Positions 32,570-45,364 of a DNA stretch of 48,774 nt are shown piece after piece (positions within the stretch are counted from its first letter, which is position 1; each line of letters starts with the position of its first letter). Location of the stretch: positions 1 to 48,774 of the IMG/VR virus record IMGVR_UViG_3300036979_000438; one strand, written 5' to 3'. The translations under genes were made by a program, and so were the position numbers. The notes under the pieces are model-generated. The model ran no database searches, was not told the origin of the DNA, and saw only the letters and a list, made by a program, of their open reading frames with translations. The DNA comes from a virus.

Positions 32570-32586
32570 ACACACTCCAAATCGCT

Positions 32587-32657
32587 CTAGCAAACCTCTA
32601 TCACACCATGATAGACAAACACTAGCAAACCTCTATCATGCTAGCAAACCTCTATCA
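32587..32657. repeat. Three 17-bp direct repeats, probable operator
   Basis: CTAGCAAACCTCTATCA occurs exactly at 32587-32603, 32622-32638 and 32641-32657. Between copies 1 and 2 there is an inverted half (TGATAGA, 32609-32615) facing the TCTATCA end of copy 1 across 5 bases. The array begins 18 bases upstream of the RHH start codon. Confidence 0.85.
32619..32647 (-). promoter_or_regulatory. Candidate leftward early promoter
   Basis: On the minus strand a -35 TTGCTA (32647-32642) and a -10 TAGTGT (32624-32619) are 17 bases apart. The -35 lies in operator copy 3, and the -10 overlaps the end of copy 2. A second match at 17-base spacing (TTGCTA in copy 2, TGTGAT) is possible. Either way, a protein on the repeats would block polymerase. 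Confidence 0.5.
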
Positions 32658-33088
32658 CCCCCCAACCCACGCAAGAACACCCACACAGCTAGCTGGTCCT
32701 TATGGGTGGTGGCTGCGGGTCGGGTCCGGGTTCGCGGGTGCGCGAGGCCGGACGACCCCGTGCGGGCCCACACAGCCCCGGAGACGGGCCCGAGCTCACG
32801 GGCGCACCGACCCTACCGGGCCCGAGCTCGACGCTCACACAGGACCACACAGGACGACACAGCGATGCGAGCTCACGGCCGCGGTTGGGTGCGCGGGGTT
32901 GGGTTGGGTGCGCTGTGTGGGTGGCGGGGCGTGAGGGTTGGTGCGGGTGGCCGCGGGGTTGTGTGTGAGTGTACCGGGTTGGGTGCGCGGGGTTGTGTGT
33001 GGGCGCGCCGGCGCGGCTGTGTGTGTCCTGGGTTGGGTGCCGGCTGGCGCGGTTTTTGTCCAGCTTGGGCGGTTGCCGGCGCGGGTAG
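32658..33088 (+). other. Non-coding GC-rich spacer with G/T-rich strand and G-quadruplex potential
   Basis: No supported gene. The left part carries GAGCTC-containing modules. From about 32880 to 33065 the plus strand is strikingly G- and T-rich, with repeated GGTTGGG and GTTGTGTGTG runs. At 32919-32947 four G-runs (GGG, GGGG, GGG, GGG) with loops of 4, 5 and 7 bases fit a canonical G-quadruplex. It separates divergent leftward and rightward transcription. The apparent long frames here are shadows. Confidence 0.5.
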
Positions 33089-33146
33089 TTGCGTTGCCGG
33101 GCGCGAACGTGTACGGTGGTGCGTGTCGCCCGGTAGGTAGCCGGGC
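33089..33146 (+). promoter_or_regulatory. Cassette promoter 1 with 5' leader hairpin
   Basis: -35 TTGCGT (33089-33094), 17-base spacer, -10 TACGGT (33112-33117). TGTCG follows after 6 bases (33124-33128), the most divergent copy of the AGTCG start. Stem GCCCGG (33128-33133) pairs with CCGGGC (33141-33146) around a 7-base loop. AAGGGG before ATG 33165 is the ribosome site. Confidence 0.7.
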
Positions 33147-33164
33147 CTGAGCTAAGGGGTAACG

Positions 33165-33566
33165 ATGGAACTACTGTCAGGGTGGACTATCCGGGAGGCA
33201 ATCGCCGCGGCCAACATGGTCGGCGAGGATGCTGTGCACGCTGTGTGTGGTGCGGCGGGACTGTCGGGTGCGGCGCCGCATGAGCTCCGGGCGCTGTGTG
33301 CTCTCGGCCGTATGTGGGTGGCGCCTGAGACGGTGGCCGCGCCGAGCTCGGCCGAGCTTGCATCCTGGGATGCCGAGCGTCTCCGGGCGATGCCGGTCCT
33401 GTGGCGCGGCCTGTGTGATTCCGGGCGTCTCGACGTATGGCACAGCGCGGCGCATTTCGACCGGACCGGGGACGAGCTCCGGCCGTGGGCGGGACGGTGG
33501 CACGATGCACAGCATGAGGCTGCGATGCGTGTCCTCGGCCGCGACGCTAACGGGCGGGTCATCTGA
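33165..33566 (+). CDS. Hypothetical protein, cassette 1 first gene
   Basis: A 133-aa protein beginning MELLSGWTIREAIAAANMVG. It is helical with many Trp and His residues (RLDVWHSAAHFDRTG, WAGRWHDAQHEAAMRVLG). The ATG has an AAGGGGT site 6 bases upstream. No family recognised. The end overlaps the next gene by one base (TGATG). Confidence 0.55.
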   Translation: MELLSGWTIREAIAAANMVGEDAVHAVCGAAGLSGAAPHELRALCALGRMWVAPETVAAPSSAELASWDAERLRAMPVLWRGLCDSGRLDVWHSAAHFDRTGDELRPWAGRWHDAQHEAAMRVLGRDANGRVI

Positions 33567-33859
33567 TGACGGGCCCGGCGCAGACTTTCCGGTGCGACGC
33601 GTGCCGCGCCTGTGTCCTGTGGGCTCGCGCCGGCGCGCCGGCAACCGGGCGGGTCATGCATGACGTTGCCGGGGCTGTGGAACGGCGCCTGTGGCTAGAC
33701 GGTGAGCTTTCCCACAGCGCGCTGTGGCACGGTGCCGGGGCTACCGTCACGCTTGCCGAGCTCGACGGGGACGACGACGTGCCCGCGGGCTCAGGGTGCG
33801 AGCTGTGCGGCCGTCGGGCTGTGGGACGGGTGGCAGTCACTTACGCGCCGGCAACCTAG
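33566..33859 (+). CDS. Zinc-finger-like protein, cassette 1 second gene
   Basis: A 97-aa protein with two cysteine pairs about 65 residues apart, FRCDACRACV and GCELCGRRAVGRVAV, probably one zinc site. The C-terminal block resembles that of the cassette 3 protein at 36295 (CLVCGTQAERAGVVV), so the two may be paralogues. A strong terminator follows 22 bases later. Confidence 0.55.
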   Translation: MTGPAQTFRCDACRACVLWARAGAPATGRVMHDVAGAVERRLWLDGELSHSALWHGAGATVTLAELDGDDDVPAGSGCELCGRRAVGRVAVTYAPAT

Positions 33860-33881
33860 ACCGCGCCGGCAATCGGCACAG

Positions 33882-33913
33882 CGGGCCCGGTTCCCTTTGG
33901 GGGACCGGGCCCG
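33882..33913 (+). terminator. Cassette 1 terminator
   Basis: 14-bp stem (33882-33895 with 33900-33913, one G.U pair) and a TTTG loop, built on CGGGCCCGGT, followed by TTCGCGTTTT. The same tail follows the terminators near 35.4, 36.8 and 37.9 kb. Confidence 0.85.
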
Positions 33914-34350
33914 TTCGCGTTTTCGGGACTTGCCGGCGCGCGAGCTCGGGGCAGTCTGTGAGTGTCTCGGGGCGCGGCCTGTGTGTGTGAGCTCGCACCG
34001 GCGCGAGGCTGTGGGCGCGGCTGTGCGGGCCCGAGCTCGCACCCTGGGATGCGGGCCCGGACGGACGGCCGAGCTCGCACAGCGGCCGAGCTCGACGCGC
34101 CGGCGCGGCGCCGAGCTGGACAAAAACACGCGGGACGGGCGCGCCTGTGAGTGTCCCCCGCGCACGCGTGAGTGACCCTCCCGGCCGGGGCGCGGCGCCG
34201 CGGCCGCGGGGCGCGGGCGGGCCCGAGCTCGACGCGCCGGCGCGGCGTCATTCCTGGCACGCGCCGCGGAATGACGCGGGACCGGGCGCGTTTTTCTGTC
34301 CAGCCGGCGCGCGCCGGCGCGGCCCGTTTTGGGTGCGAGCTCGCGGGTTG
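33914..34350 (+). other. Non-coding GC-rich spacer 1/2
   Basis: No supported gene. Contains many GAGCTC sites, GTGAGTGTCCCC (34147) and GTGAGTGACCC (34168-34178) elements, a TTTTTCTGTCCAG module near 34291 and a 16-bp palindrome of GCCGGCGC type (34303-34318). An inverted copy of the GTCCAG module is near 34110. Confidence 0.5.
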
Positions 34351-34407
34351 TTGCAATCCTGGCGCGAACGTGTAGAGTGTCTGTCAGTCGCCCGGCACCG
34401 GCCGGGC
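34351..34407 (+). promoter_or_regulatory. Cassette promoter 2 with 5' leader hairpin
   Basis: -35 TTGCAA (34351-34356), 16-base spacer, -10 TAGAGT (34373-34378), 7 bases, AGTCG (34386-34390). Stem GCCCGGC (34390-34396) pairs with GCCGGGC (34401-34407) around an ACCG tetraloop. The A of AGTCG is the likely +1. Confidence 0.8.
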
Positions 34408-34427
34408 CCGAATCAAAGTGAGTGAGC

Positions 34428-34508
34428 ATGAACGGACTTCCTGAGTGGGACCTAGACGTGTGCGGGACGTGCCTGTGTGGGTTGCGAACGGCGACGATTC
34501 CGGCCTAG
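34428..34508 (+). CDS. 26-aa cysteine-motif leader ORF (or start of a frame-shifted gene)
   Basis: ATG at 34428, the first start after promoter 2, gives a 26-residue peptide containing DVCGTCLCGL before a TAG. It overlaps the next frame by 64 bases in the -1 direction. It may be a real micro-protein, a translational leader, or the true N-terminus of the next gene broken by a one-base indel. Confidence 0.35.
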   Translation: MNGLPEWDLDVCGTCLCGLRTATIPA

Positions 34509-34747
34509 AGCTAGAGCCCGCGGAGTACGTCGGCCGTATTCGGGCCGAGCGGGAGCGGCGGGAGGCCGAATACAATGACGCCGCGGTCGCCGCGGGAGGG
34601 TCGCACGCTGTGTTCGTCCCGGCCTGTGATGACGGGTGCGACGACGGCGGGTTCACTCACGCTATGTGCGACCTGTGCGGCGTCTCCGGGCGTGATTCGC
34701 ACCGCGTGAACGTGTGGACCGCGCCGGTGCGGGACGGTGCACGATGA
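34445..34747 (+). CDS. Zinc-motif protein, cassette 2
   Basis: Up to 100 aa; the start is uncertain among several GTG codons (34445 to 34475), with weak ribosome sites. The supported core is LELEPAEYVGRIRAERERREAEYNDAA-type helix followed by a Cys-rich ACDDGCDDGG ... MCDLCGVSGRDSHRVNVW, probably zinc-binding. It ends in an ATGA overlap. Function unknown. Confidence 0.5.
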   Translation: MGPRRVRDVPVWVANGDDSGLELEPAEYVGRIRAERERREAEYNDAAVAAGGSHAVFVPACDDGCDDGGFTHAMCDLCGVSGRDSHRVNVWTAPVRDGAR

Positions 34748-35157
34748 ACGGCCGAGCTCGACAGACTGAGCGCGCCGGCTGGCGCGATTTTTGGCCCGAG
34801 CTCGCGGGGATTGCGTTCGTCGTGGCCGCGGTCATTGCGTTCGCCGCGATGGTCCTGCCGGTTCGGTGGAATGACGAACCGGGCGAGGGTCGGGCCACCC
34901 TGGCAATCGGGGAGGCTGTGCGAGACGGACGGCCGACCTACGCCGCGGGCTGTGTAGACGTCCGGGCCGACGGCGAGACGTGGCGCAACCTATCCGGCGC
35001 CCGGTACCTAGTTCGCACCGTTGACGCGGTCGGGGACGGTTCCGTGTGGGTATTCGTGAACGGGACCTTTGTCGCATGGTCCGACGGGCCCGACGACCTT
35101 GTGACCGCGTGCGCGCCGGCCGAGCTCGCCGCGGCTATCGGGGAGGCACAGCCGTGA
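34744..35157 (+). CDS. Single-pass membrane protein with soluble domain
   Basis: A 137-aa protein with its ATG in the previous stop. A basic N-terminus (NGRARQTERAGWRDFWPEL) precedes one membrane helix, about 22-43 (AGIAFVVAAVIAFAAMVLPV). The outside part (AYAAGCVDVRADGETW-like, RYLVRTVDAVGDGSVWVFVNG) looks like a small beta domain. It would sit in the host membrane. Unknown family. Confidence 0.55.
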   Translation: MNGRARQTERAGWRDFWPELAGIAFVVAAVIAFAAMVLPVRWNDEPGEGRATLAIGEAVRDGRPTYAAGCVDVRADGETWRNLSGARYLVRTVDAVGDGSVWVFVNGTFVAWSDGPDDLVTACAPAELAAAIGEAQP

Positions 35158-35390
35158 GCGGCGCGGCTGTGTTGAGCTTGCAACCGTACGCGGATTCATT
35201 CGGGGCGCGGCCGGACGTGTTCCTAGTTGTCACGGGCCGCGGCGACGTGGTCGGCGCGGTGAAACGTGGCACCGGCTACCGGGCACAATGGTCCGGGCCG
35301 AGCGGCACAGGGTGGCACAGCTCGCGGCGGGCCGCGCTTGCCGCGTGGCAGTCCTGGGCCGACGACCTAGCTAGCAAGCTCGCACCGTAG
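35154..35390 (+). CDS. Hypothetical protein, cassette 2 last gene
   Basis: A 78-aa protein with a GTG start in a GTGA overlap. The core VFLVVTGRGDVVGAVKRGTG then WHSSRRAALAAWQSWADDLA suggests a beta hairpin plus helix, similar in style to cassette 3 and 5 proteins. A terminator follows 22 bases later. Confidence 0.55.
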   Translation: MSGAAVLSLQPYADSFGARPDVFLVVTGRGDVVGAVKRGTGYRAQWSGPSGTGWHSSRRAALAAWQSWADDLASKLAP

Positions 35391-35412
35391 CGGGCCCGAG
35401 CTCGACGGCCGA

Positions 35413-35444
35413 CCGGGCCCGGTTCCGTGAGGGACCGGGCCCGG
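35413..35444 (+). terminator. Cassette 2 terminator
   Basis: 14-bp stem (35413-35426 with 35431-35444, one G.U pair) and a GTGA loop, again on the CCGGGCCCGG core, followed by TTCGCGTTTTT. Confidence 0.88.
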
Positions 35445-35958
35445 TTCGCGTTTTTGGGTCCAGCCGGCGCGCGCCGGCCGGACGGGTTTTCGGCCCGAGC
35501 TCGCACCGTGGCGCCGGTCCGGGCCCGGAACCGGGCGCGCCGGCGCGGCGTCATCCTGGCCCGTAGCGGCCGCACAGCGGGCCCGAGCTCACACAGGCGG
35601 GTGACGGTGCCGGGCGCGAGCTCGCGGCCTGTGTGGGCCCGTGAGCGGCCGAGCTCGCACCGGCCGACCACGGGCGCGGCCGTGAGCTCGCCGCGCCGGC
35701 GCGGCGGGTCCGGCGCCCGAGCTCGCACCCTGGCCCGGTCCGGGCCGAGCTCGACGCGGGCCCGAGCTCGCACGCGCACGGATGACCCCCGCGCCCGCGT
35801 GAGTGACCCCCGCGCCGGCGCGGCCCGCGGGGCGCGCCGGCGCGCCGGCCGGGCGGGTGGCCGAGCTCGCACCGTGCCACCACAGGCGCCCCGGCCGTTT
35901 TTGGGTCCAGCCGGCGCGCGCCGGCTGGCCGGGTTTTCGGGCCGAGCTCGGGCGATAG
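35445..35958 (+). other. Non-coding GC-rich spacer 2/3
   Basis: No supported gene despite long open frames on both strands. It has two TTTTTGGGTCCAGCCGGCG modules (near 35451 and 35900), the second opening a perfect 22-bp palindrome (35907-35928), a GTGAGTGACCCC element (35799-35810) and dense GAGCTC sites. Confidence 0.5.
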
Positions 35959-36017
35959 TTGCGAACCCTGGCGCGCACGGGTTAGAGTGTCTGACAGTCG
36001 CCCGGAACCGTCCGGGC
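35959..36017 (+). promoter_or_regulatory. Cassette promoter 3 with 5' leader hairpin
   Basis: -35 TTGCGA (35959-35964), 18-base spacer, -10 TAGAGT (35983-35988), 7 bases, AGTCG (35996-36000). Stem GCCCGGA (36000-36006) pairs with TCCGGGC (36011-36017) around ACCG. An AGAAAGGG ribosome site follows. Confidence 0.8.
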
Positions 36018-36037
36018 CCGTCAGAAAGGGTAAGCGA

Positions 36038-36298
36038 ATGAGCACCACGACCACGGCCGGAGGGCCGAAGATTCACACAGCCTACGGCGTAGGGGACGCC
36101 GCGGCTATGTGGGCCGAGCTCGACGACGGGCGCACCGTTGCGGCTGTGTGGCACGGCCGGGGTTCCGCTGTGTTCATGCTGTGGCACGACAAGCTCGTGC
36201 GCGTTGAGGGTGCCGGCAACCCTGAAACCCTCGCCGCGGCCCGTCGCGCGTTCGCCCGGTTCCTGGCCGAGCTCGACACCGCGGCCGGTGCACGATGA
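36038..36298 (+). CDS. Hypothetical small alpha/beta protein, cassette 3
   Basis: An 86-aa protein. ATG at 36038 follows AAAGGG. After a Thr-rich start it has AMWAELDDGRTVAAVWHGRG, SAVFMLWHDKLVRVEGAG, and a C-terminal helix (ARRAFARFLAELDTAAG). Three strands and one helix are likely. Unknown function; ends in ATGA with the next gene. Confidence 0.55.
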   Translation: MSTTTTAGGPKIHTAYGVGDAAAMWAELDDGRTVAAVWHGRGSAVFMLWHDKLVRVEGAGNPETLAAARRAFARFLAELDTAAGAR

Positions 36299-36774
36299 GC
36301 GGCGCCGACGTGCTCGGCCCGACGTGGAACGCGACGGGCGAACGGACCACCGTGCCGGCCTGTGCCGCGTGCGTAGAGTGGGCGAGCGACGGCGCTACGT
36401 CTGTCGCGTACTACACAGGCGCCGACTGCCGGCGCGAGGAATGGCGCAACGCACGGTGGCGCGAGGCTCGGGCCCGCTACGGCGAGCGGCGCGTGTCTGT
36501 GCGACTGTCCAGCCGGCGCGCGCCGGCCGAGCTCGGCGCGCCGGCTGTGTGTCTTGTCTGCGGCACACAGGCCGAGCGGGCCGGCGTGGTCGTGACGGCG
36601 CTGTGGACTACCGAGCTTGACGCGGGCGACGTGGTGAACATTGACGGCGAGGAACACGCGGTGCGATGGCTCGACGGTCCGGACGTCGGGCTAGTGAACG
36701 GCCGGCGCGTGCCGGTGAGCGCGTGCACCTACGTCCGGCGCGGGTCCGTCATGCTGTGGGTTCGCGGCGACTAG
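36295..36774 (+). CDS. Zinc-finger-like protein, cassette 3
   Basis: A 159-aa protein with paired cysteines PACAACVEWASDG and, about 70 residues later, VCLVCGTQAERAGVVV, and a C-terminal beta domain (DVVNIDGEEHAVRWLDGPDV). The coding sequence contains a copy of the GTCCAGCCGGCGCG intergenic module (around 36506-36520), so the repeat also sits inside genes. Possible paralogue of the 33566 protein. Confidence 0.55.
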   Translation: MSGADVLGPTWNATGERTTVPACAACVEWASDGATSVAYYTGADCRREEWRNARWREARARYGERRVSVRLSSRRAPAELGAPAVCLVCGTQAERAGVVVTALWTTELDAGDVVNIDGEEHAVRWLDGPDVGLVNGRRVPVSACTYVRRGSVMLWVRGD

Positions 36775-36799
36775 CGGCGCACCCACTCACGGCCGACCA

Positions 36800-36831
36800 C
36801 GGGCCCGCACCCTCGCAAGGGTGCGGGCCCG
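36800..36831 (+). terminator. Cassette 3 terminator
   Basis: Perfect 14-bp stem (36800-36813 with 36818-36831) around CGCA, followed by TTCGCGTTCC. Confidence 0.88.
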
Positions 36832-37101
36832 TTCGCGTTCCGGGGTTAGCCGGCGCGCGCCGGCTGGACCCGTTTTGGGTGCGAGCTCGCACCCTGGCAC
36901 GCTCGACGGCCGGCGCGAGCTCGGGGCGGTTTTCGACTGTCTCGGGGTACCGGGCGCGCACGGGTGACCCTTTTGTGCGGCGCGAGCTCGGGGCGCCGGC
37001 GCGCCCGTGAGTGACCCCGCGCCGGCCGGGCCGAGCTCGGGCCCGGACCCGCGCCGGCTCGGGGCGCGCCGGCCGTTTTTGGGTCCAGCCGGCGCGGGTT
37101 G
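36832..37101 (+). other. Non-coding GC-rich spacer 3/4
   Basis: No gene. Holds an 18-bp palindrome (36848-36865), the GTCCAG module in both orientations (near 36863 and 37075), GTGAGTGACCCC (37007-37018) and several GAGCTC sites. Confidence 0.5.
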
Positions 37102-37158
37102 TTGCAATCCGTGCGCGAGCGTGTAGAGTGTTCGTTAGTCGCTCGCAACCGTGCGAGC
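37102..37158 (+). promoter_or_regulatory. Cassette promoter 4 with 5' leader hairpin
   Basis: -35 TTGCAA (37102-37107), 16-base spacer, -10 TAGAGT (37124-37129), 7 bases, AGTCG (37137-37141). Stem GCTCGCA (37141-37147) pairs with TGCGAGC (37152-37158) around ACCG. Both arms differ from promoters 2 and 3 yet pair perfectly. GGGAGGAA precedes the ATG. Confidence 0.82.
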
Positions 37159-37181
37159 CCATAGCGGGAGGAACCCCGACC

Positions 37182-37916
37182 ATGACAGAAACCACCACCA
37201 CCACCACGGGCGCCGAGCTCGACGGCACCACGGCCGACCCTGGCCCGCTTGTGTTCACGCTGCCGGCCGAGCTCGCCGCGGCCGCATGGGGCGCAGTCGT
37301 CGCGGCCGTCGCTCCCCCGCGGGACCGGCGCCCGGTCCTGTGCGGCGTGCACGTCGCGACGGGCCCGCTCGGGCTCACTCTCGCGGCGACAGACACCTAC
37401 GCGGCGCACCGCGTGACCCTGGGCCGTGAGCTCGACGGCGCGACCCTCCCCTTCCTGCCGCACGCGCCGAGCATCCTGCCCGCGTGGAAAGCGACGGACG
37501 TGGCCCGGCTGTGCAAGGGTGCCGCGCGGGTTCGGTTCACGGCTGGCGCGTTCCACAACCTAGGCGGCGAGAACATCGGCGCGCCGGCACGGTGCGAGGC
37601 GCTGGACGCGTCCGGCGCGGTCGTCGGTTCGCTCGCCGCGCCGGTTCCTGCCAACCCCGAGAACTACCCCGATTACGGGCGGTTGTTCGACGGCATCGGA
37701 TGGCCGACGGACGGCGAGCGCGTCGGACTGTCCCCGGCCCGGTTCGCCCGCACGATGACGGCCGCGGACCGGTTCGGCGGCAAGGATGGCGGGCCCGTCG
37801 TGGTCGAAACGATGACACCGCTAAAGCCGGCGCGGTTCACGATGACCCGCGAGGACGGCGCCACCCTGGCCGCGGTGCTCATGCCTCACAAGCTCCCGAC
37901 GACGGCCGACGCGTAA
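37182..37916 (+). CDS. Beta sliding clamp-like protein (DnaN homologue), short form
   Basis: A 244-aa protein resembling DNA polymerase III beta clamps. RRPVLCGVHVATGPLGLTLAATDTYAAHRV matches the start of a clamp domain ('RP.L.gv......l.l.atD..rl'), ENYPDYGRLF matches the conserved 'FPDYxRv' element, and the C-terminus VLMPHKL corresponds to the 'MPxRL' end that closes bacterial clamps. Usual clamps are ~370 aa with three domains; this one appears to lack about one domain. It is the only gene of its cassette, with a strong GGGAGGAA site. It may load a host or phage polymerase, or bind and divert host clamp partners. Confidence 0.65.
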   Translation: MTETTTTTTGAELDGTTADPGPLVFTLPAELAAAAWGAVVAAVAPPRDRRPVLCGVHVATGPLGLTLAATDTYAAHRVTLGRELDGATLPFLPHAPSILPAWKATDVARLCKGAARVRFTAGAFHNLGGENIGAPARCEALDASGAVVGSLAAPVPANPENYPDYGRLFDGIGWPTDGERVGLSPARFARTMTAADRFGGKDGGPVVVETMTPLKPARFTMTREDGATLAAVLMPHKLPTTADA

Positions 37917-37937
37917 CCGTCGCCCACTCTGGCACAG

Positions 37938-37967
37938 CCGGCCCGCACCCGCGAGGGTGCGGGCCGG
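37938..37967 (+). terminator. Cassette 4 terminator
   Basis: Perfect 13-bp stem (37938-37950 with 37955-37967) with a GCGA loop of the stable GNRA type, followed by TTCGCGTTCC. Confidence 0.88.
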
Positions 37968-38258
37968 TTCGCGTTCCGGGCCCGTCACGGCCGCACCACG
38001 GTGCGAGCTCGACGCGCCGGCCGGACGGATAGCGGGCCGGGCCGGCCGGCGCGCCGGCTAGGCGGTTCTACGGGCCGAGCTCGGGTGAACCGCGCCGGCC
38101 GGCGCGGTTGGGTTTCTGTCCAGCTCGGGCCGACCCTGGCACCGTCGGCCGGTAGGCGGGCCCGTGGTGACCCTTGCACGGCCGTGCGCGTGGGTGACCC
38201 TCGCAAGCCGGCGCGGTGCGAGCTCGACGGCCGGCGCGAAAGATTCCGGGCGCGATTG
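37968..38258 (+). other. Non-coding GC-rich spacer 4/5
   Basis: No gene. Contains GTGGGTGACCC (38190-38200) and GTGGTGACCC (about 38164), variants of the spacer element, a TTTCTGTCCAG module (around 38110), repeated GGCCGGCGCG runs and GAGCTC sites. Confidence 0.45.
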
Positions 38259-38315
38259 TTGCAATCCGTCCGGGGTTGTGTAGAGTGGCACCTAGTCGCC
38301 CGGAACAATCCGGGC
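38259..38315 (+). promoter_or_regulatory. Cassette promoter 5 with 5' leader hairpin
   Basis: -35 TTGCAA (38259-38264), 16-base spacer, -10 TAGAGT (38281-38286), 7 bases, AGTCG (38294-38298). Stem GCCCGGA (38298-38304) pairs with TCCGGGC (38309-38315) around ACAA. TAGGGGAAACGAA precedes the ATG. Confidence 0.8.
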
Positions 38316-38336
38316 CCAACCCATAGGGGAAACGAA

Positions 38337-38711
38337 ATGCCTACCGAGCTCCCGACCATCTGGCTAATTGTCGGCCCGCCGACTGACAGCCCGGACGACT
38401 ACGGCAACGGGCGCCGCATCTACGCGGTGACCTACAGCGCGAGCGGCCTGACGTGCACGCTCCGGCAGCACTACAGCGGGCGCATCGTGGCCCGTGCGGG
38501 TGGCGGCGGTTACGATCGTGCCGGGACGTGTCTGGCCGACGCGCTGCACAAGGACTACGGCGTGCCGGCGTTCGACGGTGCCCGCGGCGTAGAGGCGGTG
38601 CGGCAGCACGCGGAGCGGCACGGCGTGCGCGTGTTCACGCTGTCGGACGCGCTGTACGCGCTGCCGGTCCCGGCCGTGGCCGAGCTCAACGGCGAGGCGG
38701 TGGCCCGATGA
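38337..38711 (+). CDS. Hypothetical protein, cassette 5 first gene
   Basis: A 124-aa protein. The N-terminus has strands (TIWLIVGPPTDSPDD, IYAVTYSASGLTCTL), then helices (RAGTCLADALHKDYGVP, GVEAVRQHAERHGVRV). Alpha/beta, unknown family. ATG at 38337 follows AGGGGAAA. Ends in ATGA with the next gene; six genes follow each other this way. Confidence 0.55.
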   Translation: MPTELPTIWLIVGPPTDSPDDYGNGRRIYAVTYSASGLTCTLRQHYSGRIVARAGGGGYDRAGTCLADALHKDYGVPAFDGARGVEAVRQHAERHGVRVFTLSDALYALPVPAVAELNGEAVAR

Positions 38712-39370
38712 ACCTACTGACCCGTCTAACCGGCTGTCCGCGCTGCCATGCCGCGCCGGGACAGTCCTGCACCCTCGCACCCGCCACCCTGGCCGCGCGG
38801 CCCGAGCTCGACGGCCGGGACGCGTTCCACTCTGCGCGAATCGCCCTCGCGGACTACGCGCACACACTTGCGCGGCTTGACGGCACCGACGGCGCCATTG
38901 TGGTCGGTGTAGCGGCCGCACAGGACGACGCGCCAGCCGGCGCGGTGACCCTGTGGGCGTACCGTCACCGCGACGGGGCGCGCGGCGTGTTCCTGTGGCA
39001 CGTCGGCGCCGGCACCGTGACAGACACCGCCACGGGCGAGACTGTCGGCGGCTGTGCGTTCACGCGTACCGCTCGGGAGGCTGTGCGGGCCGCGATGCTC
39101 GCCCGGCCCGAGCTCGGGCCCGAGCTCGGCCCGGACACCGCGCTACCGCCCGAGCTCACGCTAGTAACCCGCGGCAACCCTCGCGGCGTGTGGGCGGTCG
39201 CCCGTGATCGCGCCGGCTGGGCGGTCGTGACGGTCTACGCACAGCAGGACGGCACCTACGCGGGCACCCTCACGGGTGGCCGATGGACGACGGCCGGCAG
39301 CGTGCGGCACGTCCTGGCCGCGTGTCTGCACCTAGCCGGCACGCTCGACCGGGGAGCGTTGGCCCGATGA
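38708..39370 (+). CDS. Protein with N-terminal CxxC...C zinc motif
   Basis: A 220-aa protein. The start GCPRCHAAPGQSCT followed by a His at about residue 41 (RDAFHSARIALADYAHTLA) matches a small actinobacterial zinc-binding module ('CPxCxAxPGxxC...HxxR'). The C-terminal half (WAVARDRAGWAVVTVYAQQD, GTYAGTLTGGRW) resembles part of the next protein (VATVYRETDGTYTAHGW), suggesting related domains. Function unknown. Confidence 0.55.
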   Translation: MNLLTRLTGCPRCHAAPGQSCTLAPATLAARPELDGRDAFHSARIALADYAHTLARLDGTDGAIVVGVAAAQDDAPAGAVTLWAYRHRDGARGVFLWHVGAGTVTDTATGETVGGCAFTRTAREAVRAAMLARPELGPELGPDTALPPELTLVTRGNPRGVWAVARDRAGWAVVTVYAQQDGTYAGTLTGGRWTTAGSVRHVLAACLHLAGTLDRGALAR

Positions 39371-39906
39371 TCGCGGCAACCTACCCCGGCAGCTACGTCC
39401 TAACGGACGACGGCGGGCCCGCTCGCCCCGGATGGCGCTACGTCCTACACCGTGACGGCGTGCGCGTCGCGACGGTCTACCGGGAGACGGACGGCACCTA
39501 CACCGCGCACGGGTGGCACTACTTGCACCGCCTGCCGTGGCACGGTCCGGGCGCAGACGGCCGGCACCGGCACCTAGTGGCCGACACGCCTACGGCAGCG
39601 GCCGAGCTGGTCGTGACGCTCGCGGACACGCTCGCAACCCTGGCCGACAGCCTCGCACCCTACCGGGACACCGCCGCGGCATGGCACGGCGGGCAGTCGT
39701 CCGCGTTCTACGCTCTCGCGTCATCCGGCGCCGTCGTGGAACCCTGGCAGCTTGCACGGGAGGCGGCACGCGCCGACCGGCTCGCATGGGAGGCCGAAAC
39801 GGGCGACGACGTACCGCCCGACGCCTACGCGCTCGCCGCGATCCATGCCCTAGCAACACGCGCCGCCGACACGCTCGACAGCCTGACGGACGGCGGGCCG
39901 GCATGA
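39367..39906 (+). CDS. Hypothetical protein, cassette 5
   Basis: A 179-aa protein. The N-terminal beta domain (YVLHRDGVRVATVYRETDGT) is related in style to the preceding protein, followed by His-rich WHYLHRLPWHGPGADGRHRH and a long helical C-terminus (AAELVVTLADTLATLADSLA). ATGA-coupled on both sides. Unknown. Confidence 0.5.
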   Translation: MIAATYPGSYVLTDDGGPARPGWRYVLHRDGVRVATVYRETDGTYTAHGWHYLHRLPWHGPGADGRHRHLVADTPTAAAELVVTLADTLATLADSLAPYRDTAAAWHGGQSSAFYALASSGAVVEPWQLAREAARADRLAWEAETGDDVPPDAYALAAIHALATRAADTLDSLTDGGPA

Positions 39907-40175
39907 AAACGCACGACCCCGCCACCCTCCCCGGACCACGGCCGCAACGGCGCGACCGCTGGCGCGAGACTGTCGCCGCGATCGCGTCCGGGCTAGTTGT
40001 TGAGCTCACGGCGCCCGGAGACTTCACCGACGTCGCCCAACTACACCGGCAGCGCGACCTAGTGGTGAAAGCCTGTCGGCGTGCCGGCTTGCGCGTCACG
40101 ACGCGCACGGCCGACACCGGCACCGGCACCGCTAGCCTGTGGGTCTACCCGCTCGACGTAGGCGGGCCGGCATGA
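39903..40175 (+). CDS. Hypothetical small basic protein
   Basis: A 90-aa protein with a basic N-terminus (GPRPQRRDRWRETVAAIASG), a helix (DVAQLHRQRDLVVKACRRAG) and C-terminal strands (RVTTRTADTGTGTASLWVYP). A ferredoxin-like or nucleic-acid-binding fold is possible but unproven. ATGA overlaps on both sides. Confidence 0.5.
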   Translation: MKTHDPATLPGPRPQRRDRWRETVAAIASGLVVELTAPGDFTDVAQLHRQRDLVVKACRRAGLRVTTRTADTGTGTASLWVYPLDVGGPA

Positions 40176-40438
40176 GGCGCACACGGGCCACCCTGGCGGC
40201 GCTCGCGGTCCTGGCAGCGGCCGGGACAGCTTGCACCCGCAACGCGCAAGCGTGTGTGCCGGCGGCGCTCGACGGGCCCACCGTCGCCGCGTTGCATGAC
40301 ACCGGCCGCACCCTCACCTATTCCGGGCGCGGTGTCTGGCACCTAGACGGCGACCCGATTGCCTACGCGCCCGCGGGCGAGGATGCAACGGTGCCCGCGT
40401 GCCTACCGGCCGACGTGGTGCGGGAGCTCGCACCGTGA
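40172..40438 (+). CDS. Exported small protein, possible lipoprotein
   Basis: An 88-aa protein starting MRRTRATLAALAVLAAAGTA then Cys, a signal peptide with a lipobox-like end. The mature part carries two more cysteines (ACVPAALDG and VPACLPADVV), a WHLDGDPIAY strand and GEDATVPAC. The last part matches the protein at 42678 (WLDGTLIG ... GEDAPFMAC), so these are paralogues in two cassettes. Probably acts at the cell surface. Confidence 0.6.
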   Translation: MRRTRATLAALAVLAAAGTACTRNAQACVPAALDGPTVAALHDTGRTLTYSGRGVWHLDGDPIAYAPAGEDATVPACLPADVVRELAP

Positions 40439-40587
40439 CCGCGGCCGGCATCCTCGCAACCGTGACGGCCGACCCTGGCCGGTTCCATGTTCCACCGTGG
40501 TCCGTGTTCGCGTTCCTAGGCGCCGTCATCGTGCTTTGTCTGGCGCTCGACGTGTGGGCGACCCTGACAGGACGCGCCGACGACTAG
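40435..40587 (+). CDS. Small membrane protein, 50 aa
   Basis: GTG start in a GTGA overlap. One membrane helix (VFAFLGAVIVLCLALDVWAT) after a short amphipathic start. It follows the exported protein gene, so both may act in the envelope. Unknown function. Confidence 0.5.
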   Translation: MTAAGILATVTADPGRFHVPPWSVFAFLGAVIVLCLALDVWATLTGRADD

Positions 40588-40614
40588 CGGCACCCTTCCC
40601 CCCATCCCCCCGGC

Positions 40615-40653
40615 ATCGGCCCGCACCGCTACCCCTTCCCGGTGCGGGCCGAT
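40615..40653 (+). terminator. Cassette 5 terminator
   Basis: Perfect 14-bp stem (40615-40628 with 40640-40653, ATCGGCCCGCACCG) around an 11-base loop. It shares the GGCCCGCACC core with cassettes 3 and 4 but lacks the TTCGCGTT tail. Confidence 0.75.
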
Positions 40654-41051
40654 GCGCGCCCCGACAGCCTCGCACCGCCCACCCTGGCACCCTCGCACCG
40701 TGCGAGCTCGACGGCCGGCGCCCCCGCACCGTGCCACGCGCCAGCCGCGACCGGGCGACCCTCGCACCGTCATGCTGCCCCCCGTGCGCGTGTGAGTGAC
40801 CCCCGACGACCCTCGCACGCGCACGCGTGAGTGACCCCCCGGCCGCGCCCGATGCTGCCCCCCGGCGACCCCCGGCCCGAGCTCGACCCGGCCCGCCCGC
40901 CCGCCGTGCTGCCCCCGTGCTGCCCCCGTGGCCGCGCCTGATGCTGCCCCCCGGCCGTCACGCTGCCCCCGCTGCCCCTCACCCGCACAGGCTGTCCCCC
41001 GGCCGGTTCGCCCGCCCGATTGCTGCCCCCGAAAGAATCTGCCGCAAAGGG
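40654..41051 (+). other. Non-coding spacer 5/6 with CTGCCCC repeats
   Basis: No gene. Different character from earlier spacers: GTGAGTGACCCC at 40792 and 40827, but few GAGCTC sites and about nine copies of CTGCCCC (40773-41030), including GTGCTGCCCC twice in tandem near 40908. Confidence 0.5.
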
Positions 41052-41111
41052 TTGCAATCCGAGCGCGCACGGATTACGGTGCCCCCTAGTCGCTTTGGCA
41101 CCCGCCAGAGC
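41052..41111 (+). promoter_or_regulatory. Cassette promoter 6 with 5' leader hairpin
   Basis: -35 TTGCAA (41052-41057), 17-base spacer, -10 TACGGT (41075-41080), 7 bases, AGTCG (41088-41092). Stem GCTTTGGC (41092-41099) pairs with GCCAGAGC (41104-41111), one G.U, around ACCC. GGGAGGAAA precedes the ATG. Confidence 0.82.
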
Positions 41112-41132
41112 CCGAACCGGGAGGAAACCCCG

Positions 41133-41405
41133 ATGCCCACCCTGCCCACCAACTACAACGTCCCCGTGACGGACGGTTTCGACGCGCCGAGCGCGTACTA
41201 CGCCGACCCCGACGTGGCGGCTCTGGCACGCGTCGCCGCGTGCCGCATCCCCGGAGCGTTCGCAGAGCTCATGCACGAAGCGTGCGACGGCGACTACGAC
41301 ACCGCCCGTGCCGTCGTCCAGCTCGCGCTGCTCGACGCAGAGGCCGACACGCTCGCCCGTGGCACCGCCCTGGCCGACACCCTCACGCCGGGGGTGGCCC
41401 GATGA
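41133..41405 (+). CDS. Hypothetical helical protein, cassette 6
   Basis: A 90-aa protein. After MPTLPTNYNVPVTDGFDAPS it is helical (DVAALARVAACRIPGAFAEL, YDTARAVVQLALLDAEADTL). ATG has an ideal GGGAGGAAA site. ATGA overlap with the next gene. Unknown. Confidence 0.55.
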   Translation: MPTLPTNYNVPVTDGFDAPSAYYADPDVAALARVAACRIPGAFAELMHEACDGDYDTARAVVQLALLDAEADTLARGTALADTLTPGVAR

Positions 41406-41611
41406 CCGAGCTCCCCGCCATCGGCAGCACCGTCCAGATGGACAACCCCCTGTCCACGCTGCACGGCAGCACCGGCACCGTCGTCTGCCATCAGACGTTC
41501 GGCGGTGCCACCCTCGTCGGGGTCACGTTCGACTTCGACGGGTTCCCGGTCGGTTGTTCCGTCCGCGAGCTCATCCCCGCCCACACCCTCACCACGGAGG
41601 CCAACCGATGA
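41402..41611 (+). CDS. Small beta-barrel-like protein
   Basis: A 69-aa protein: LPAIGSTVQMDNPLSTLHGS, TGTVVCHQTFGGATLVGVTF, GFPVGCSVRELIPAHTL. The pattern of a G-T-V strand followed by long hairpins suggests an SH3/KOW-like small barrel. ATGA-coupled on both sides. Unknown role. Confidence 0.5.
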   Translation: MTELPAIGSTVQMDNPLSTLHGSTGTVVCHQTFGGATLVGVTFDFDGFPVGCSVRELIPAHTLTTEANR

Positions 41612-42225
41612 CCACGAACACCCTCACCCACCCGCTCGACACCCTCACCGGCGACGGCGACACCCACACGCTGCCAGACGGCCGCACCCTACGGGTCCGC
41701 ATCCTCCCCGACCACGACTACACCGTGACCGGCGACGGCGATTGGTTCGGGGCGCTCGCCCCCGTCACCCTGGACCGCTACACCGGCTGGCACAACGGCC
41801 GACCGGCCGGGTTCGACGGTGCTGCCGTCATCCTGCACGACTACAACGGCGAGCGGTGGTGGTGGCAGGCACCCGCCGACGTGCGGGACAACCCTCGCAC
41901 CCTGGGCGGTCTGCGGGCCTGTCTGCTCGACGCGATCACCTACGGCGCATCCCTAGTGTTCCTTGAGCTCTGCGCCGGCACCGACGCCTACGGCGCTGCC
42001 ATCGTTCAGGACTACACCGTCGTCGGCGGGGTGCTGGACGCCTACGACCCCGTGACGCTGCACGACGTCCTGGGCGACCTGCTGTCTGAGCTGTGCGACG
42101 ACACCGGGCTCGACGTCCCCGCCTACAAGTACGCGCCGGCCGCTGCCATCTGCGGCCGTTGCGGCGACCACTTCGACGGACAGCACACCATCTGCCCGTC
42201 GTGCCGTACTGAGTGGGAGGACTGA
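41608..42225 (+). CDS. Actinobacteriophage conserved protein with C-terminal zinc ribbon
   Basis: A 205-aa protein. LRVRILPDHDYTVTGDGDWF, a WHNGRPAGFDGAAVIL segment, RWWWQAPADVR, and TYGASLVFLELCAGTDAYG give the pattern of a widespread uncharacterised actinobacteriophage family. A zinc ribbon (CGRCGDHFDGQHTICPSC) is fused at the C-terminus. Function unknown. Confidence 0.6.
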   Translation: MTTNTLTHPLDTLTGDGDTHTLPDGRTLRVRILPDHDYTVTGDGDWFGALAPVTLDRYTGWHNGRPAGFDGAAVILHDYNGERWWWQAPADVRDNPRTLGGLRACLLDAITYGASLVFLELCAGTDAYGAAIVQDYTVVGGVLDAYDPVTLHDVLGDLLSELCDDTGLDVPAYKYAPAAAICGRCGDHFDGQHTICPSCRTEWED

Positions 42226-42228
42226 CCC

Positions 42229-42681
42229 ATGCCCGACACCCTCACCGAAACACGCCTAGCCCTGCTCGCCGCCAGCAACGGCGCAACGCTCGACATTCGC
42301 CCAACCGGCCGCGAAGGGTCAAAGCTCACCATCACCCACGACGAAACCGCGTGGGTGTTCGTCCGGTTCTCCGACGCCGACGAATGGCACCTGGACTACC
42401 GGGCCGACAACGGCCGGCCCAACTACACCGTGCGCGGCGAAGTCGTGTGGGACACCCCCGAACATCACACCCTGGACGCGATCGAAGAACCGTTCGTCTG
42501 TGTCCATTGTCTGCAAGTGCCCCGCAAGGACGACCGGCTCGACCCTGTGACCGAGCGTTGCGGCCGATGCGACGACAACGCATCCGACGACGAGCTCGAA
42601 ACGCACCTGGCGCAGAGCGAGGACTACCGGCCGACGCTTCCCGGCAACGGACAGCACTACCGGGACGGCTGGAAACCGTGA
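42229..42681 (+). CDS. Hypothetical protein with zinc-ribbon
   Basis: A 150-aa protein: ETRLALLAASNGATLDIRPT then an AWVFVRFSDADEWHLDYRA beta region and a zinc site FVCVHCLQVPRK ... RCGRCDDN. Starts 3 bases after the previous gene. Unknown. Confidence 0.55.
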   Translation: MPDTLTETRLALLAASNGATLDIRPTGREGSKLTITHDETAWVFVRFSDADEWHLDYRADNGRPNYTVRGEVVWDTPEHHTLDAIEEPFVCVHCLQVPRKDDRLDPVTERCGRCDDNASDDELETHLAQSEDYRPTLPGNGQHYRDGWKP

Positions 42682-43046
42682 ACCCCGACACCATCCTCGC
42701 AACCATCCACAACACACCCACCCACACCTGGCGCGCCGCTGCCGTTGCTGCCGCCGCCACGTTCGTCGTGGCCGGCAGCATCGCCGGGAACGCCCTACCG
42801 GCGAGCTCGACGTCCGCTGCCGCCAGCCGCGACGAATGGCCCGCCTGCACCCTGTTCACCGACCTGGCACGCGACAAGCTCAAAGCGAAAGGACACAACG
42901 TTGTGTACCGGCCCGTGGGTGCTCGCGGAGGGTTCTATTGGCTCGACGGCACCCTCATCGGCAACGCGTCGGGCGAGGACGCCCCGTTCATGGCGTGTGC
43001 CACCGAGAAAGTGATTGCGCCCATTCGCGACGTTCCCCGCTACTGA
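42678..43046 (+). CDS. Exported protein, paralogue of the 40172 product
   Basis: A 122-aa protein with a GTG start in a GTGA overlap. It has a hydrophobic N-terminal segment, about 22-39 (AAVAAAATFVVAGSIAG), ending in a possible signal-peptidase site, then ACTLFTDLARDKLKAKG, FYWLDGTLIGNA and GEDAPFMACATEKVI. The last parts align with the cassette 5 exported protein. Two conserved cysteines could form a disulphide outside the cell. Confidence 0.55.
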   Translation: MNPDTILATIHNTPTHTWRAAAVAAAATFVVAGSIAGNALPASSTSAAASRDEWPACTLFTDLARDKLKAKGHNVVYRPVGARGGFYWLDGTLIGNASGEDAPFMACATEKVIAPIRDVPRY

Positions 43047-43082
43047 TCGCGGGCGGCTACCATGCCGTCCTGCACAACATCG

Positions 43083-43128
43083 GAACCCCCGGCCCACCCA
43101 CCCTTCCTCTCTCTCGGGCCGGGGGTTC
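43083..43128 (+). terminator. Cassette 6 terminator
   Basis: Perfect 13-bp inverted repeat (GAACCCCCGGCCC, 43083-43095, and its complement, 43116-43128) around a 20-base C/T-rich loop. Located 37 bases after the last gene of the cassette. Confidence 0.7.
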
Positions 43129-43185
43129 TGCGCGTCCTGGGCCAGCTCACGGCCGGCACCGGGACGACCGCGGTAGGCTTGACCT

Positions 43186-43638
43186 ATGACCGGCCGCACC
43201 ATTGACCGCCACGACGTCGCGCTACGCCTAGCGGGCGGCTCGACAGTCGCACAGATCGCCCGTGACCTGTCTGCCGACTACAAGCACATGGCCGATATTG
43301 CGCGAGAGCCCGAAGTGCAACGCATGGTCGCAGAACACCGACGCGAAGTCGCAGACCGGGTACGGGCCGGCATCATTCAGGGTGCCACCGTAGGTGTGCG
43401 AACCCTCATCGAAGCTGCGGCCAACACGGACGGCACCGTCCCGTGGGCGACACGCGTTCAGGCCGCGACCCGGCTGGTCGAAGCCGCGGTAGGTAAGCAC
43501 ATCACCCTGGACGCGGGCCCGTCCGTCGTGGACGACCCCAACGTTGTGTCCCCCGTGGACCTGCTGCGCGAACAGCTCGCAGTCATCGAGGCCCGGAGCA
43601 TCGAACCGGCCGACGACGCCGAACCTGCCGGCACCTGA
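43186..43638 (+). CDS. HTH DNA-binding protein, candidate terminase small subunit
   Basis: A 150-aa protein with an N-terminal helix-turn-helix (DVALRLAGGSTVAQIARDLS) followed by helices (REPEVQRMVAEHRREVADRV, GIIQGATVGVRTLIEAAAN, PWATRVQAATRLVEAAVG). This HTH-plus-helical layout is common in small terminase subunits and related phage DNA-binding proteins. Its own promoter is unclear: TAGGCT lies 9 bases before the ATG with no ribosome site, so the mRNA may be nearly leaderless. It is far from the large subunit gene. Confidence 0.5.
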   Translation: MTGRTIDRHDVALRLAGGSTVAQIARDLSADYKHMADIAREPEVQRMVAEHRREVADRVRAGIIQGATVGVRTLIEAAANTDGTVPWATRVQAATRLVEAAVGKHITLDAGPSVVDDPNVVSPVDLLREQLAVIEARSIEPADDAEPAGT

Positions 43639-43642
43639 CCCC

Positions 43643-43954
43643 GTGGTCGTCCTGACCCTCCCCGGTGGCACCGTCCTTGCTGCCCCCTCCCCTGAAACCC
43701 TGGTCGCCCGATGGTGCGAGCTTGTCGCCCTAGCCTCGCCGGACGTTGTGCTGTCCCCCCGTGACCTAAAACGCGACGTGGCCCGTGCCGTCCAGCGTGC
43801 CGCCGAGCTCGACCAAGCCTCGCGGCTCCCCCTGGGTGACCCCCCGCTGCCCCCTCTGCGGCCGTTGCCGTGGGAGGACACCGACGACGCGTTCCTGACG
43901 GCCGGAGCCGAGCGGGGCTGCTGGCACTACCCGCTGCCCCCCGCTGCCCCCTAG
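43643..43954 (+). CDS. Hypothetical protein with proline-rich tail
   Basis: A 103-aa protein from a GTG 4 bases after the HTH gene. VVVLTLPGGTVLAAPSPETL then a helix with DLKRDVARAVQRAAELDQ; the C-terminus is Pro-rich and partly encoded by CTGCCCC repeats, so its end may have grown by repeat expansion. Unknown. Confidence 0.45.
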   Translation: MVVLTLPGGTVLAAPSPETLVARWCELVALASPDVVLSPRDLKRDVARAVQRAAELDQASRLPLGDPPLPPLRPLPWEDTDDAFLTAGAERGCWHYPLPPAAP

Positions 43955-44101
43955 CGAACCCCCGCTGCCCCCCGCCACGGCTACGATTCCGGTGCGGCAC
44001 GTCGGGTCGTTGAGCGTGTTCCACACTCCACGCTTCGACCCGGCCGGCACACGGGGGACGGTTTCCGGCTGTCCCCCGTTGCCGTTCCCTGCTGCCCCCC
44101 G
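43955..44101 (+). repeat. CTGCCCC-repeat spacer before promoter 7
   Basis: No gene. Continues the CTGCCCC repeats that begin in the preceding gene (43847 onward). A CGGGGGACGG / CTGTCCCCCG inverted repeat near 44052-44078 could be a terminator. Confidence 0.4.
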
Positions 44102-44160
44102 TTGCGTTGCCGACCCTGAGCGGCTAGAGTGCCCCGTAGTCGTTTCGGACCCGCCGAAAC
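44102..44160 (+). promoter_or_regulatory. Cassette promoter 7 with 5' leader hairpin
   Basis: -35 TTGCGT (44102-44107), 17-base spacer, -10 TAGAGT (44125-44130), 7 bases, AGTCG (44138-44142). Stem GTTTCGG (44142-44148) pairs with CCGAAAC (44154-44160) around ACCCG. The arms share little sequence with the other sites. Confidence 0.8.
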
Positions 44161-44180
44161 CCGACACAGGAGACACCCTC

Positions 44181-44567
44181 TTGCACCCGCACACCGACCC
44201 CGACGTGGCGCTCGCAGAACTACGCCACGCCGCCACCGAAGTCACCCACAACGGCCACCTGGGACGCGTCCACATCATCGAGTCCTACCCCGACCTCGGT
44301 GCCCCCTTCGCAGTCACCCTCACCGGCAAACAAGACACGATCGTCGGCATCATCTACCACGCATCCATGCTCACCGGGAGCGAGCTCTACCGCTACATCC
44401 CGAAAGAGTGGTTCGACGCTGTGGCCCGCCACGCGTGGCTCGCGTCCGACCCCGAGTTCACCGCCGAACACGACCAGCACGACGACACCCTGAGCGTCGA
44501 ACTCACCGCAACCGAAGCGAGCGCGTTCGCCCGAGCGATGCTCAAAGCAGGAAAGTGGAACCGATGA
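44181..44567 (+). CDS. Hypothetical protein, cassette 7 first gene
   Basis: A 128-aa protein. The TTG at 44181 is chosen because CAGGAGA lies 7 bases upstream and the start fits the leader of promoter 7; the frame is open further upstream but through the promoter. Helix VALAELRHAATEVTHNGHLG, strands PFAVTLTGKQDTIVGIIYHA, and LYRYIPKEWFDAVARHAWLA follow. Unknown. ATGA overlap with the next gene. Confidence 0.5.
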   Translation: MHPHTDPDVALAELRHAATEVTHNGHLGRVHIIESYPDLGAPFAVTLTGKQDTIVGIIYHASMLTGSELYRYIPKEWFDAVARHAWLASDPEFTAEHDQHDDTLSVELTATEASAFARAMLKAGKWNR

Positions 44568-45364
44568 AAGTCATAGTTCAGTATTCGACCGGAGCCGGCA
44601 GCGCCGAAGTCGCTGTTCGCTGCGTCGAACAGTACGGCCTAGAGAACGTAGACCTGCTCTCGGCCGACACCGCAGTCGAGGACGAGGACAACTGGCGTTT
44701 CGCGCAAGAAGTGTGGGAATGGCTCGGCCGACCCACCTGGCACCGCATCCGTGACGGCCGCACCCCGATGGAAGTAGGACGCGACAAGCGTTGCGTTCCC
44801 AACAACCGGCTTGCCGTCTGCTCCCGCATCCTCAAGAGGGAACCGCTCCGCAAGTTCATGGACCGCCACTACGACCCTGCCGACAGCCTTGTCGCCCTCG
44901 GGTTCGACTGGACAGAGGACCATCGGCTCAACGCTTCCTACGAACCATGGAAGCCCTGGACAATCTGTGCGCCACTCATGGAAGCCCCGTACTTGCAGAA
45001 GGCCGACATTCTGCAAGCTTGGCGTGACCGTGGCATCGAACCGCCACGCCTGTATGCCCTCGGGTTCAGTCATGCCAACTGTGGCGGTGCCTGCGTGCGT
45101 GGTGGACACAAGGCATGGCGACTGTTGCTGAACACCATTCCCGAACGCTTCATGGAATGGGAAGCAGAAGAAGAAGCCATCCGTCAGATGCTCGGCAAGG
45201 ACGTAAGCATCCTGCGCGAGAACCGGGCCGGCATACCGACACCCGTGACGCTCCGGGCGTTTCGAGAGCGTGCCGAGAACCAGCCAAGCCTGTTTGACGA
45301 CGACGAGGACTGGGGAGCCTGTGGATGCTTCACGGTCTACGAGGACGAAACGGAAGAAGCATGA
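44564..45364 (+). CDS. PAPS reductase/ATP-pyrophosphatase-like protein
   Basis: A 266-aa protein of the adenine nucleotide alpha-hydrolase superfamily, as in many phages. The PP-loop position is VQYSTGAGSAEVAV (residues 5-18; compare SGGxxS). Then DLLSADTAVEDEDNWRF, DGRTPMEVGRDKRCVPNNRL, AVCSRILKREPLRKFM and GFSHANCGGACVRGGHKAW follow, all typical of phage 'phosphoadenosine phosphosulphate reductase-like' proteins. Cysteines near 87 and 168-172 may hold a cluster or act in catalysis. Real substrates of the phage group are uncertain; nucleic-acid modification is one proposal. Confidence 0.75.
   Translation: MKVIVQYSTGAGSAEVAVRCVEQYGLENVDLLSADTAVEDEDNWRFAQEVWEWLGRPTWHRIRDGRTPMEVGRDKRCVPNNRLAVCSRILKREPLRKFMDRHYDPADSLVALGFDWTEDHRLNASYEPWKPWTICAPLMEAPYLQKADILQAWRDRGIEPPRLYALGFSHANCGGACVRGGHKAWRLLLNTIPERFMEWEAEEEAIRQMLGKDVSILRENRAGIPTPVTLRAFRERAENQPSLFDDDEDWGACGCFTVYEDETEEA

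What the first reader, a model, noticed from the sequence alone, without database searches (positions are those of the whole stretch)
33124..44160. Seven operons share a 5'-terminal RNA hairpin whose two arms covary
Seen directly: after the -10 of seven rightward promoters comes AGTCG (TGTCG in site 1) and at once a hairpin: 33128-33146, 34390-34407, 36000-36017, 37141-37158, 38298-38315, 41092-41111, 44142-44160. Stems differ (GCCCGGC, GCCCGGA, GCTCGCA, GCTTTGGC, GTTTCGG) but the opposite arm always changes to match, once through a G.U pair. The loop is ACCG three times, otherwise ACAA, ACCC or ACCCG, with a 7-base loop in site 1. CC follows the stem in every copy. In six sites the A of AGTCG lies exactly 8 bases after the -10, where +1 is expected, so the hairpin would begin 4 bases from the RNA 5' end. 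Inference: a phage-specific 5' structure that protects mRNAs, directs a ribosome or RNA-binding protein, or marks phage messages when host RNA is degraded. Actinobacteriophages have other repeated start-associated elements (cluster K SAS/ESAS), but I know of no 5'-terminal covarying hairpin like this.
Basis: partly seen in the sequence, partly recalled or inferred. Interest (0 to 1): 0.86.

Follow-up and report, generated by a model that had tools for sequence, protein, structure and literature searches.

The report
Phage operons with matching 5' RNA hairpins
In an uncultivated phage, seven separate gene sets each start their predicted messenger RNA with a small hairpin whose sequence differs between copies while its two arms stay complementary, which points to an RNA shape kept by selection, probably to guard or mark the front end of the message.

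Summary
All seven hairpins are at the stated coordinates, each 4 nt after the predicted start of a sigma-70-like promoter. A descriptor (GTC, stem of 7 bp or more, CC) hits six of them and nothing else on either strand of 48.8 kb; shuffles average 0.43, at most 2. Six of seven stem pairs change on both sides and none breaks (0 of 500 shuffles match). Site 1 is the odd copy (T at +1, CT not CC, one base nearer the -10, a competing fold). New: the hairpin ends 18-23 nt before the start codon, and AGTC, the first loop bases and the trailing CC are as conserved as the -10 box while neighbouring bases are not. No homologue was found with the searches used; a distant relative has two copies of another promoter, each with a different 5' hairpin; nine other phages show no such trend. 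Function was not tested. Best reading: a 5'-end mRNA protector of the ompA/vacA type, made into a repeated promoter cassette, possibly with a binding factor. 5' hairpins did not stabilise mRNA in M. smegmatis, which counts against protection alone.

The parts
33089..33164 (+). Site 1: -35 TTGCGT 33089-33094, -10 TACGGT 33112-33117, TGTC 33124-33127, hairpin 33128-33146 (GCCCGGU/GCCGGGC, loop AGGUA), CT, leader; ATG 33165
   Evidence: 35.9 bits, weakest copy; alternative fold with its coding sequence
34351..34428 (+). Site 2: -35 TTGCAA, -10 TAGAGT 34373-34378, AGTC 34386-34389, hairpin 34390-34407 (loop ACCG), CC; ATG 34429 (26-aa ORF)
   Evidence: 54 bits
35959..36037 (+). Site 3: -35 TTGCGA, -10 TAGAGT 35983-35988, AGTC, hairpin 36000-36017 (loop ACCG), CC; ATG 36038
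   Evidence: 53.3 bits
37102..37181 (+). Site 4: -35 TTGCAA, -10 TAGAGT 37124-37129, AGTC, hairpin 37141-37158 (GCUCGCA/UGCGAGC, loop ACCG), CC; ATG 37182 (clamp-like protein)
   Evidence: 50.6 bits
38259..38336 (+). Site 5: -35 TTGCAA, -10 TAGAGT 38281-38286, AGTC, hairpin 38298-38315 (loop ACAA), CC; ATG 38337
   Evidence: 52.3 bits
41052..41132 (+). Site 6: -35 TTGCAA, -10 TACGGT 41075-41080, AGTC, hairpin 41092-41111 (8 bp GCUUUGGC/GCCAGAGC with one U.G, loop ACCC), CC; ATG 41133
   Evidence: 40.7 bits
44102..44180 (+). Site 7: -35 TTGCGT, -10 TAGAGT 44125-44130, AGTC, hairpin 44142-44160 (GUUUCGG/CCGAAAC, loop ACCCG), CC; TTG start 44181
   Evidence: 43 bits
33880..33915 (+). Terminator-like 14-bp hairpin ending operon 1; similar ones at 35411-35446, 36799-36832 and 37936-37969
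   Evidence: T-rich tails only in part

Best explanation
A promoter-plus-leader cassette gives each rightward operon an mRNA with inferred 5' end AGUC, then a 7-8 bp hairpin, then CC and about 20 nt holding the ribosome-binding site. The hairpin works as RNA structure. Most likely it shields the 5' end: only 4 nt are left free upstream, the initiating ribosome covers much of the 18-23 nt downstream, and several operons end in a 14-bp terminator-like hairpin, so 5'-end-dependent decay (pyrophosphohydrolase, then RNase E or J) has little to grip. Shown here: position relative to the promoter, pairing, compensatory change, near-fixed spacing. Inferred: the +1, the protection, and any help from a factor reading AGUC, the loop and CC.
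For: Six of seven pairs compensate. The element occurs only at these promoters. It lies 4 nt from the inferred 5' end and 18-23 nt from the start codon in all seven. Sequence-varied stems with kept pairing argue against a DNA operator. A distant relative (G026, portal 36% identical) has two copies of one promoter, each with a different 5' hairpin. Precedent: the vacA stem-loop at +4 to +30, whose variants mostly keep pairing, and whose disruption shortens mRNA half-life while restored pairing rescues it (PMC4843948); a 5' hairpin impedes RppH conversion and stabilises bla mRNA in E. coli, and hairpins at or near the 5' end stabilise Bacillus mRNA (PMC3997798).
Against: In M. smegmatis, deleting 5' hairpins did not shorten half-life and no transcriptome-wide correlation was seen (PMC11728522). 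G at position 2 is a favoured B. subtilis RppH feature (PMC3997798), so AG... starts are not obviously protective, and four free nucleotides exceed that enzyme's stated minimum of two. Pure shielding does not explain why AGTC (0.93 mean pairwise identity), the first two loop bases (0.86) and CC (0.86) are as conserved as the -10 (0.84) while the spacer (0.33) and leader (0.40) are not. No RNA data; the host is unknown.
Confidence: 0.42

Rival explanations
1. The hairpin is the binding site of a specific RNA-binding protein (phage or host) that recognises AGUC, the A(C) loop and CC on any stem, and so marks or regulates phage messages, like phage operator hairpins.
For: Flanks and first loop bases conserved as strongly as the -10 while stem, spacer and leader vary; seven dispersed operons share it and nothing else in the window does.
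Against: The rest of the loop varies in sequence and length (AGGUA, ACCG, ACAA, ACCC, ACCCG); no RNA-binding family was recognised among the window proteins that were scanned; the copies may share recent ancestry, which alone keeps some bases.
Confidence: 0.28
2. The element acts on RNA polymerase: the nascent hairpin forms at the exit channel just after promoter escape and sets pausing, escape or antitermination (HK022 put-like or pause-hairpin-like).
For: Strict position right after the promoter; conserved initial AGTC; operons separated by strong terminator-like hairpins.
Against: A single 7-bp hairpin is much smaller than put (own knowledge); each operon has its own promoter and several their own terminator, so antitermination is little needed.
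Confidence: 0.15
3. DNA operator: a palindrome over +5 to +22 bound by a repressor or activator.
For: Palindromes over start sites are common operators (own knowledge).
Against: Stem sequence changes at 6 of 7 pair positions with the partner always following, once through a U.G pair; slid pairings do not show this.
Confidence: 0.05
4. Leader insulation: the hairpin locks GC-rich 5' sequence away so that the ribosome-binding site stays open.
For: Hairpin lies just upstream of the ribosome-binding site at near-fixed spacing.
Against: Predicted accessibility of SD plus start hardly changes when the 3' arm is shuffled (0.34-0.70 natural, 0.34-0.66 shuffled means).
Confidence: 0.05
5. Chance or mere duplication of a promoter segment in very GC-rich, palindrome-rich DNA.
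For: The arm is full of palindromes and repeats; copies 2-5 are alike (family D4).
Against: Duplication would not make both arms change together; 0 of 500 shuffles reach the covariation; no hit elsewhere in the window.
Confidence: 0.03

Closest known systems
5'-terminal stabilising stem-loops (E. coli ompA/papA, B. subtilis aprE, H. pylori vacA)
   Same: Hairpin near the 5' end of an mRNA; vacA stem-loop at +4 to +30 with variants that mostly keep pairing (PMC4843948)
   Different: Those are single genes; here seven operons carry it as one promoter cassette with conserved flanks and loop start, close to the ribosome-binding site; no stability data
Cluster K mycobacteriophage SAS/ESAS
   Same: Repeated element at gene starts in the non-structural arm of a phage; ESAS has inverted repeats with a short spacer (PMC3203893)
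   Different: SAS is a 13-bp sequence at translation starts; ESAS arms are 17 bp with a sequence consensus, not sequence-varied covarying stems tied to +1
HK022 put RNA and pause hairpins
   Same: Structured nascent RNA near the promoter
   Different: put is a larger RNA acting on downstream terminators (own knowledge); not tested here
Phage RNA operators (MS2 coat, T4 gp43)
   Same: Small hairpin with some conserved loop or flank bases upstream of a gene
   Different: No binder known; loop remainder varies; seven different targets

Membership tests
5'-terminal mRNA-stabilising stem-loop | Stable stem-loop starting within about 5 nt of the transcript 5' end | tested here: inconclusive
   4 nt from the inferred +1 in all seven; +1 not mapped
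5'-terminal mRNA-stabilising stem-loop | Structure, not sequence, of the stem is conserved | tested here: met
   6 of 7 pairs change on both sides, 100% paired
5'-terminal mRNA-stabilising stem-loop | Stem disruption shortens half-life and restoration rescues it | not testable with these tools
   needs reporters
Cluster K SAS/ESAS | 13-bp GGGATAGGAGCCC at translation start | tested here: not met
   Leaders of the seven operons lack it by reading (PMC3203893, for the motif)
Intrinsic terminator or attenuator | GC stem followed at once by a U run | tested here: not met
   Stem followed by CC or CT then mixed sequence in all seven
Known Rfam family | Score at or above gathering threshold | tested here: not met
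   None in the whole window; none of the four weak matches at E<=3 overlaps a site
DNA operator | Conserved half-site sequence | tested here: not met
   Arms 0.58-0.61 identical, changing in pairs
N4-type promoter hairpin | Hairpin upstream of +1 and a giant virion RNA polymerase | tested here: not met
   Hairpins lie downstream of sigma-70-like -35/-10; the largest ORF is 2109 aa and matches only phage families of unknown function

The most novel reading that the evidence does not exclude
A phage-wide 5' mRNA tag: seven operons share a cap-like AGUC-hairpin-CC module read by a dedicated phage factor that separates phage from host mRNA for decay or translation.
Probability: 0.18. Interest if true: 0.85.

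Novelty: new variant of a known kind. Interest (0 to 1): 0.56.

Why it matters
5' hairpins are known on single bacterial mRNAs. A phage that fits the same kind of hairpin, with compensated stems, to each of seven promoters would be a natural replicate experiment on what a 5' structure does, in a presumed actinobacterial setting where its role is disputed. It gives seven ready-made leaders for reporter tests.

Tried and rejected
The genome contigs pattern gave 4 matches, in Bacteroidota, Geomonas and a haloarchaeon by their titles; they were not read further. The clamp-like protein had no relative in viral contigs or phages; right-arm DNA had no match in phages. A promoter-only pattern found other phages with hairpins 6-9 nt after the -10 (L348 four copies with invariant stems; L321 group; L344), but over 31 non-redundant sites the offset histogram shows no clear peak, so generality is not claimed. 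Model R1 on 1.1 Mb of relatives and other phages: best E 0.36. Insulation of the ribosome-binding site: no effect in folding. Covariation across species could not be tested because the close relatives (L001, L002, L019-L021) are short structural-arm contigs.

Full report
Observation. The seven sites are as described. The promoter is TTGC-type -35, 16-18 bp, TASRGT; the hairpin starts 11 nt after the -10 (10 in site 1). A descriptor scan finds six of the seven (site 1 lacks CC) and nothing else on either strand; 40 shuffles average 0.43, maximum 2. A covariance model made from the seven returns them at 35.9-54 bits, E 2.2e-6 or better, next match E 0.86; the sites match by construction, so the informative part is the gap to the next match.

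Covariation. Counted on arms alone, with sites 3 and 5 merged because their arms are identical, 42 of 42 cells pair, six of seven pairs change on both sides, and the score is 0.895 against 0.305 in shuffles (0 of 500) and at most 0.256 slid. The copies are paralogues within one genome, so this is evidence from six distinct stems, not from a phylogeny.

What is conserved. Mean pairwise identity is 0.93 for AGTC, 0.84 for the -10, 0.86 for the first two loop bases and 0.86 for the two bases after the stem, but 0.58-0.61 for the arms, 0.33 for the spacer between -10 and +1 and 0.40 for the leader after the flank. The hairpin ends 18, 21, 20, 23, 21, 21 and 20 nt before the proposed start codons; leaders are 41-45 nt. 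So the element sits at near-fixed distance from both the inferred 5' end and the ribosome-binding site. The starts of sites 2 (26-aa ORF) and 7 (TTG) are my assignments from the ribosome-binding sequence.

Distribution. The window is a 48,774-base virus record. Its head and portal proteins are about 32-42% identical to those of phages of Streptomyces, Gordonia, Microbacterium and of cyanophage Pam4; an actinobacterial host is likely but not shown. Close relatives (portal 94-100%; L002 61%) are short contigs that do not reach the hairpins. No copy was found in viral contigs, genome contigs or the phage collection with the patterns used. A distant relative, G026 (portal 36%), has two copies of a TTGACTCCC...TACCATAGT promoter, each followed by a different hairpin near +1: a second case, on two copies only. 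Nine other phages (eight of actinobacteria, one cyanophage) show no such trend over 97 promoter-like sites.

How it may work. Kept pairing with changing sequence says the RNA shape matters. Position at the inferred 5' end recalls stabilising stem-loops: vacA of H. pylori has one at +4 to +30 whose disruption shortens half-life and whose restored pairing rescues it (PMC4843948); in E. coli a 5' hairpin impedes RppH and stabilises bla mRNA, and in Bacillus hairpins at or near the 5' end stabilise mRNA (PMC3997798). Against this, in M. smegmatis 5' hairpins did not stabilise a reporter and showed no genome-wide correlation (PMC11728522). The conserved flanks and loop start are not needed for plain shielding and leave room for a binding factor. 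Insulation of the ribosome-binding site is not supported by folding. I put protection at about 0.42, a specific binder at 0.28 and an action on RNA polymerase at 0.15.

Limits. No transcript data; +1 is inferred; the gene content of the operons is mostly unknown, with a clamp-like protein behind site 4 and a PAPS-reductase-like protein behind site 7. Literature searches covered open-access papers only and used few terms, so 'not described before' means not found there.

Noticed in passing
window 33000-44600: GAGCTC occurs 56 times where base composition predicts 3.8 (12 against 11.0 in 1-33000), in coding and non-coding DNA; a predicted DNA methyltransferase gene lies at 30745-31503.
   Followed up: partly
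window 34289, 35449, 35896, 36835, 37063: A second repeated intergenic element, TTTTTGGGTCCAGCCGGCGCGCGCCGGCTGG, with nearly invariant palindrome sequence, between terminators and promoters.
   Followed up: no
L348 2164, 2695, 3731, 4482: Another phage contig with four copies of a TTGCAAGCC...GTGTAGAGT promoter, each followed near +1 by CGGTC-loop-GACCG; stems invariant, so operator and RNA cannot be told apart.
   Followed up: partly
window 34429-34509: The first ORF after site 2 is only 26 aa (with CGTC), overlapping longer frames downstream; possible leader peptide or frameshift.
   Followed up: no
window about 32580-32660, - strand: GATAGAGGTTTGCTAG occurs three times ahead of the leftward genes, where a leftward promoter is expected; no 5' hairpin of this type there.
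   Followed up: no
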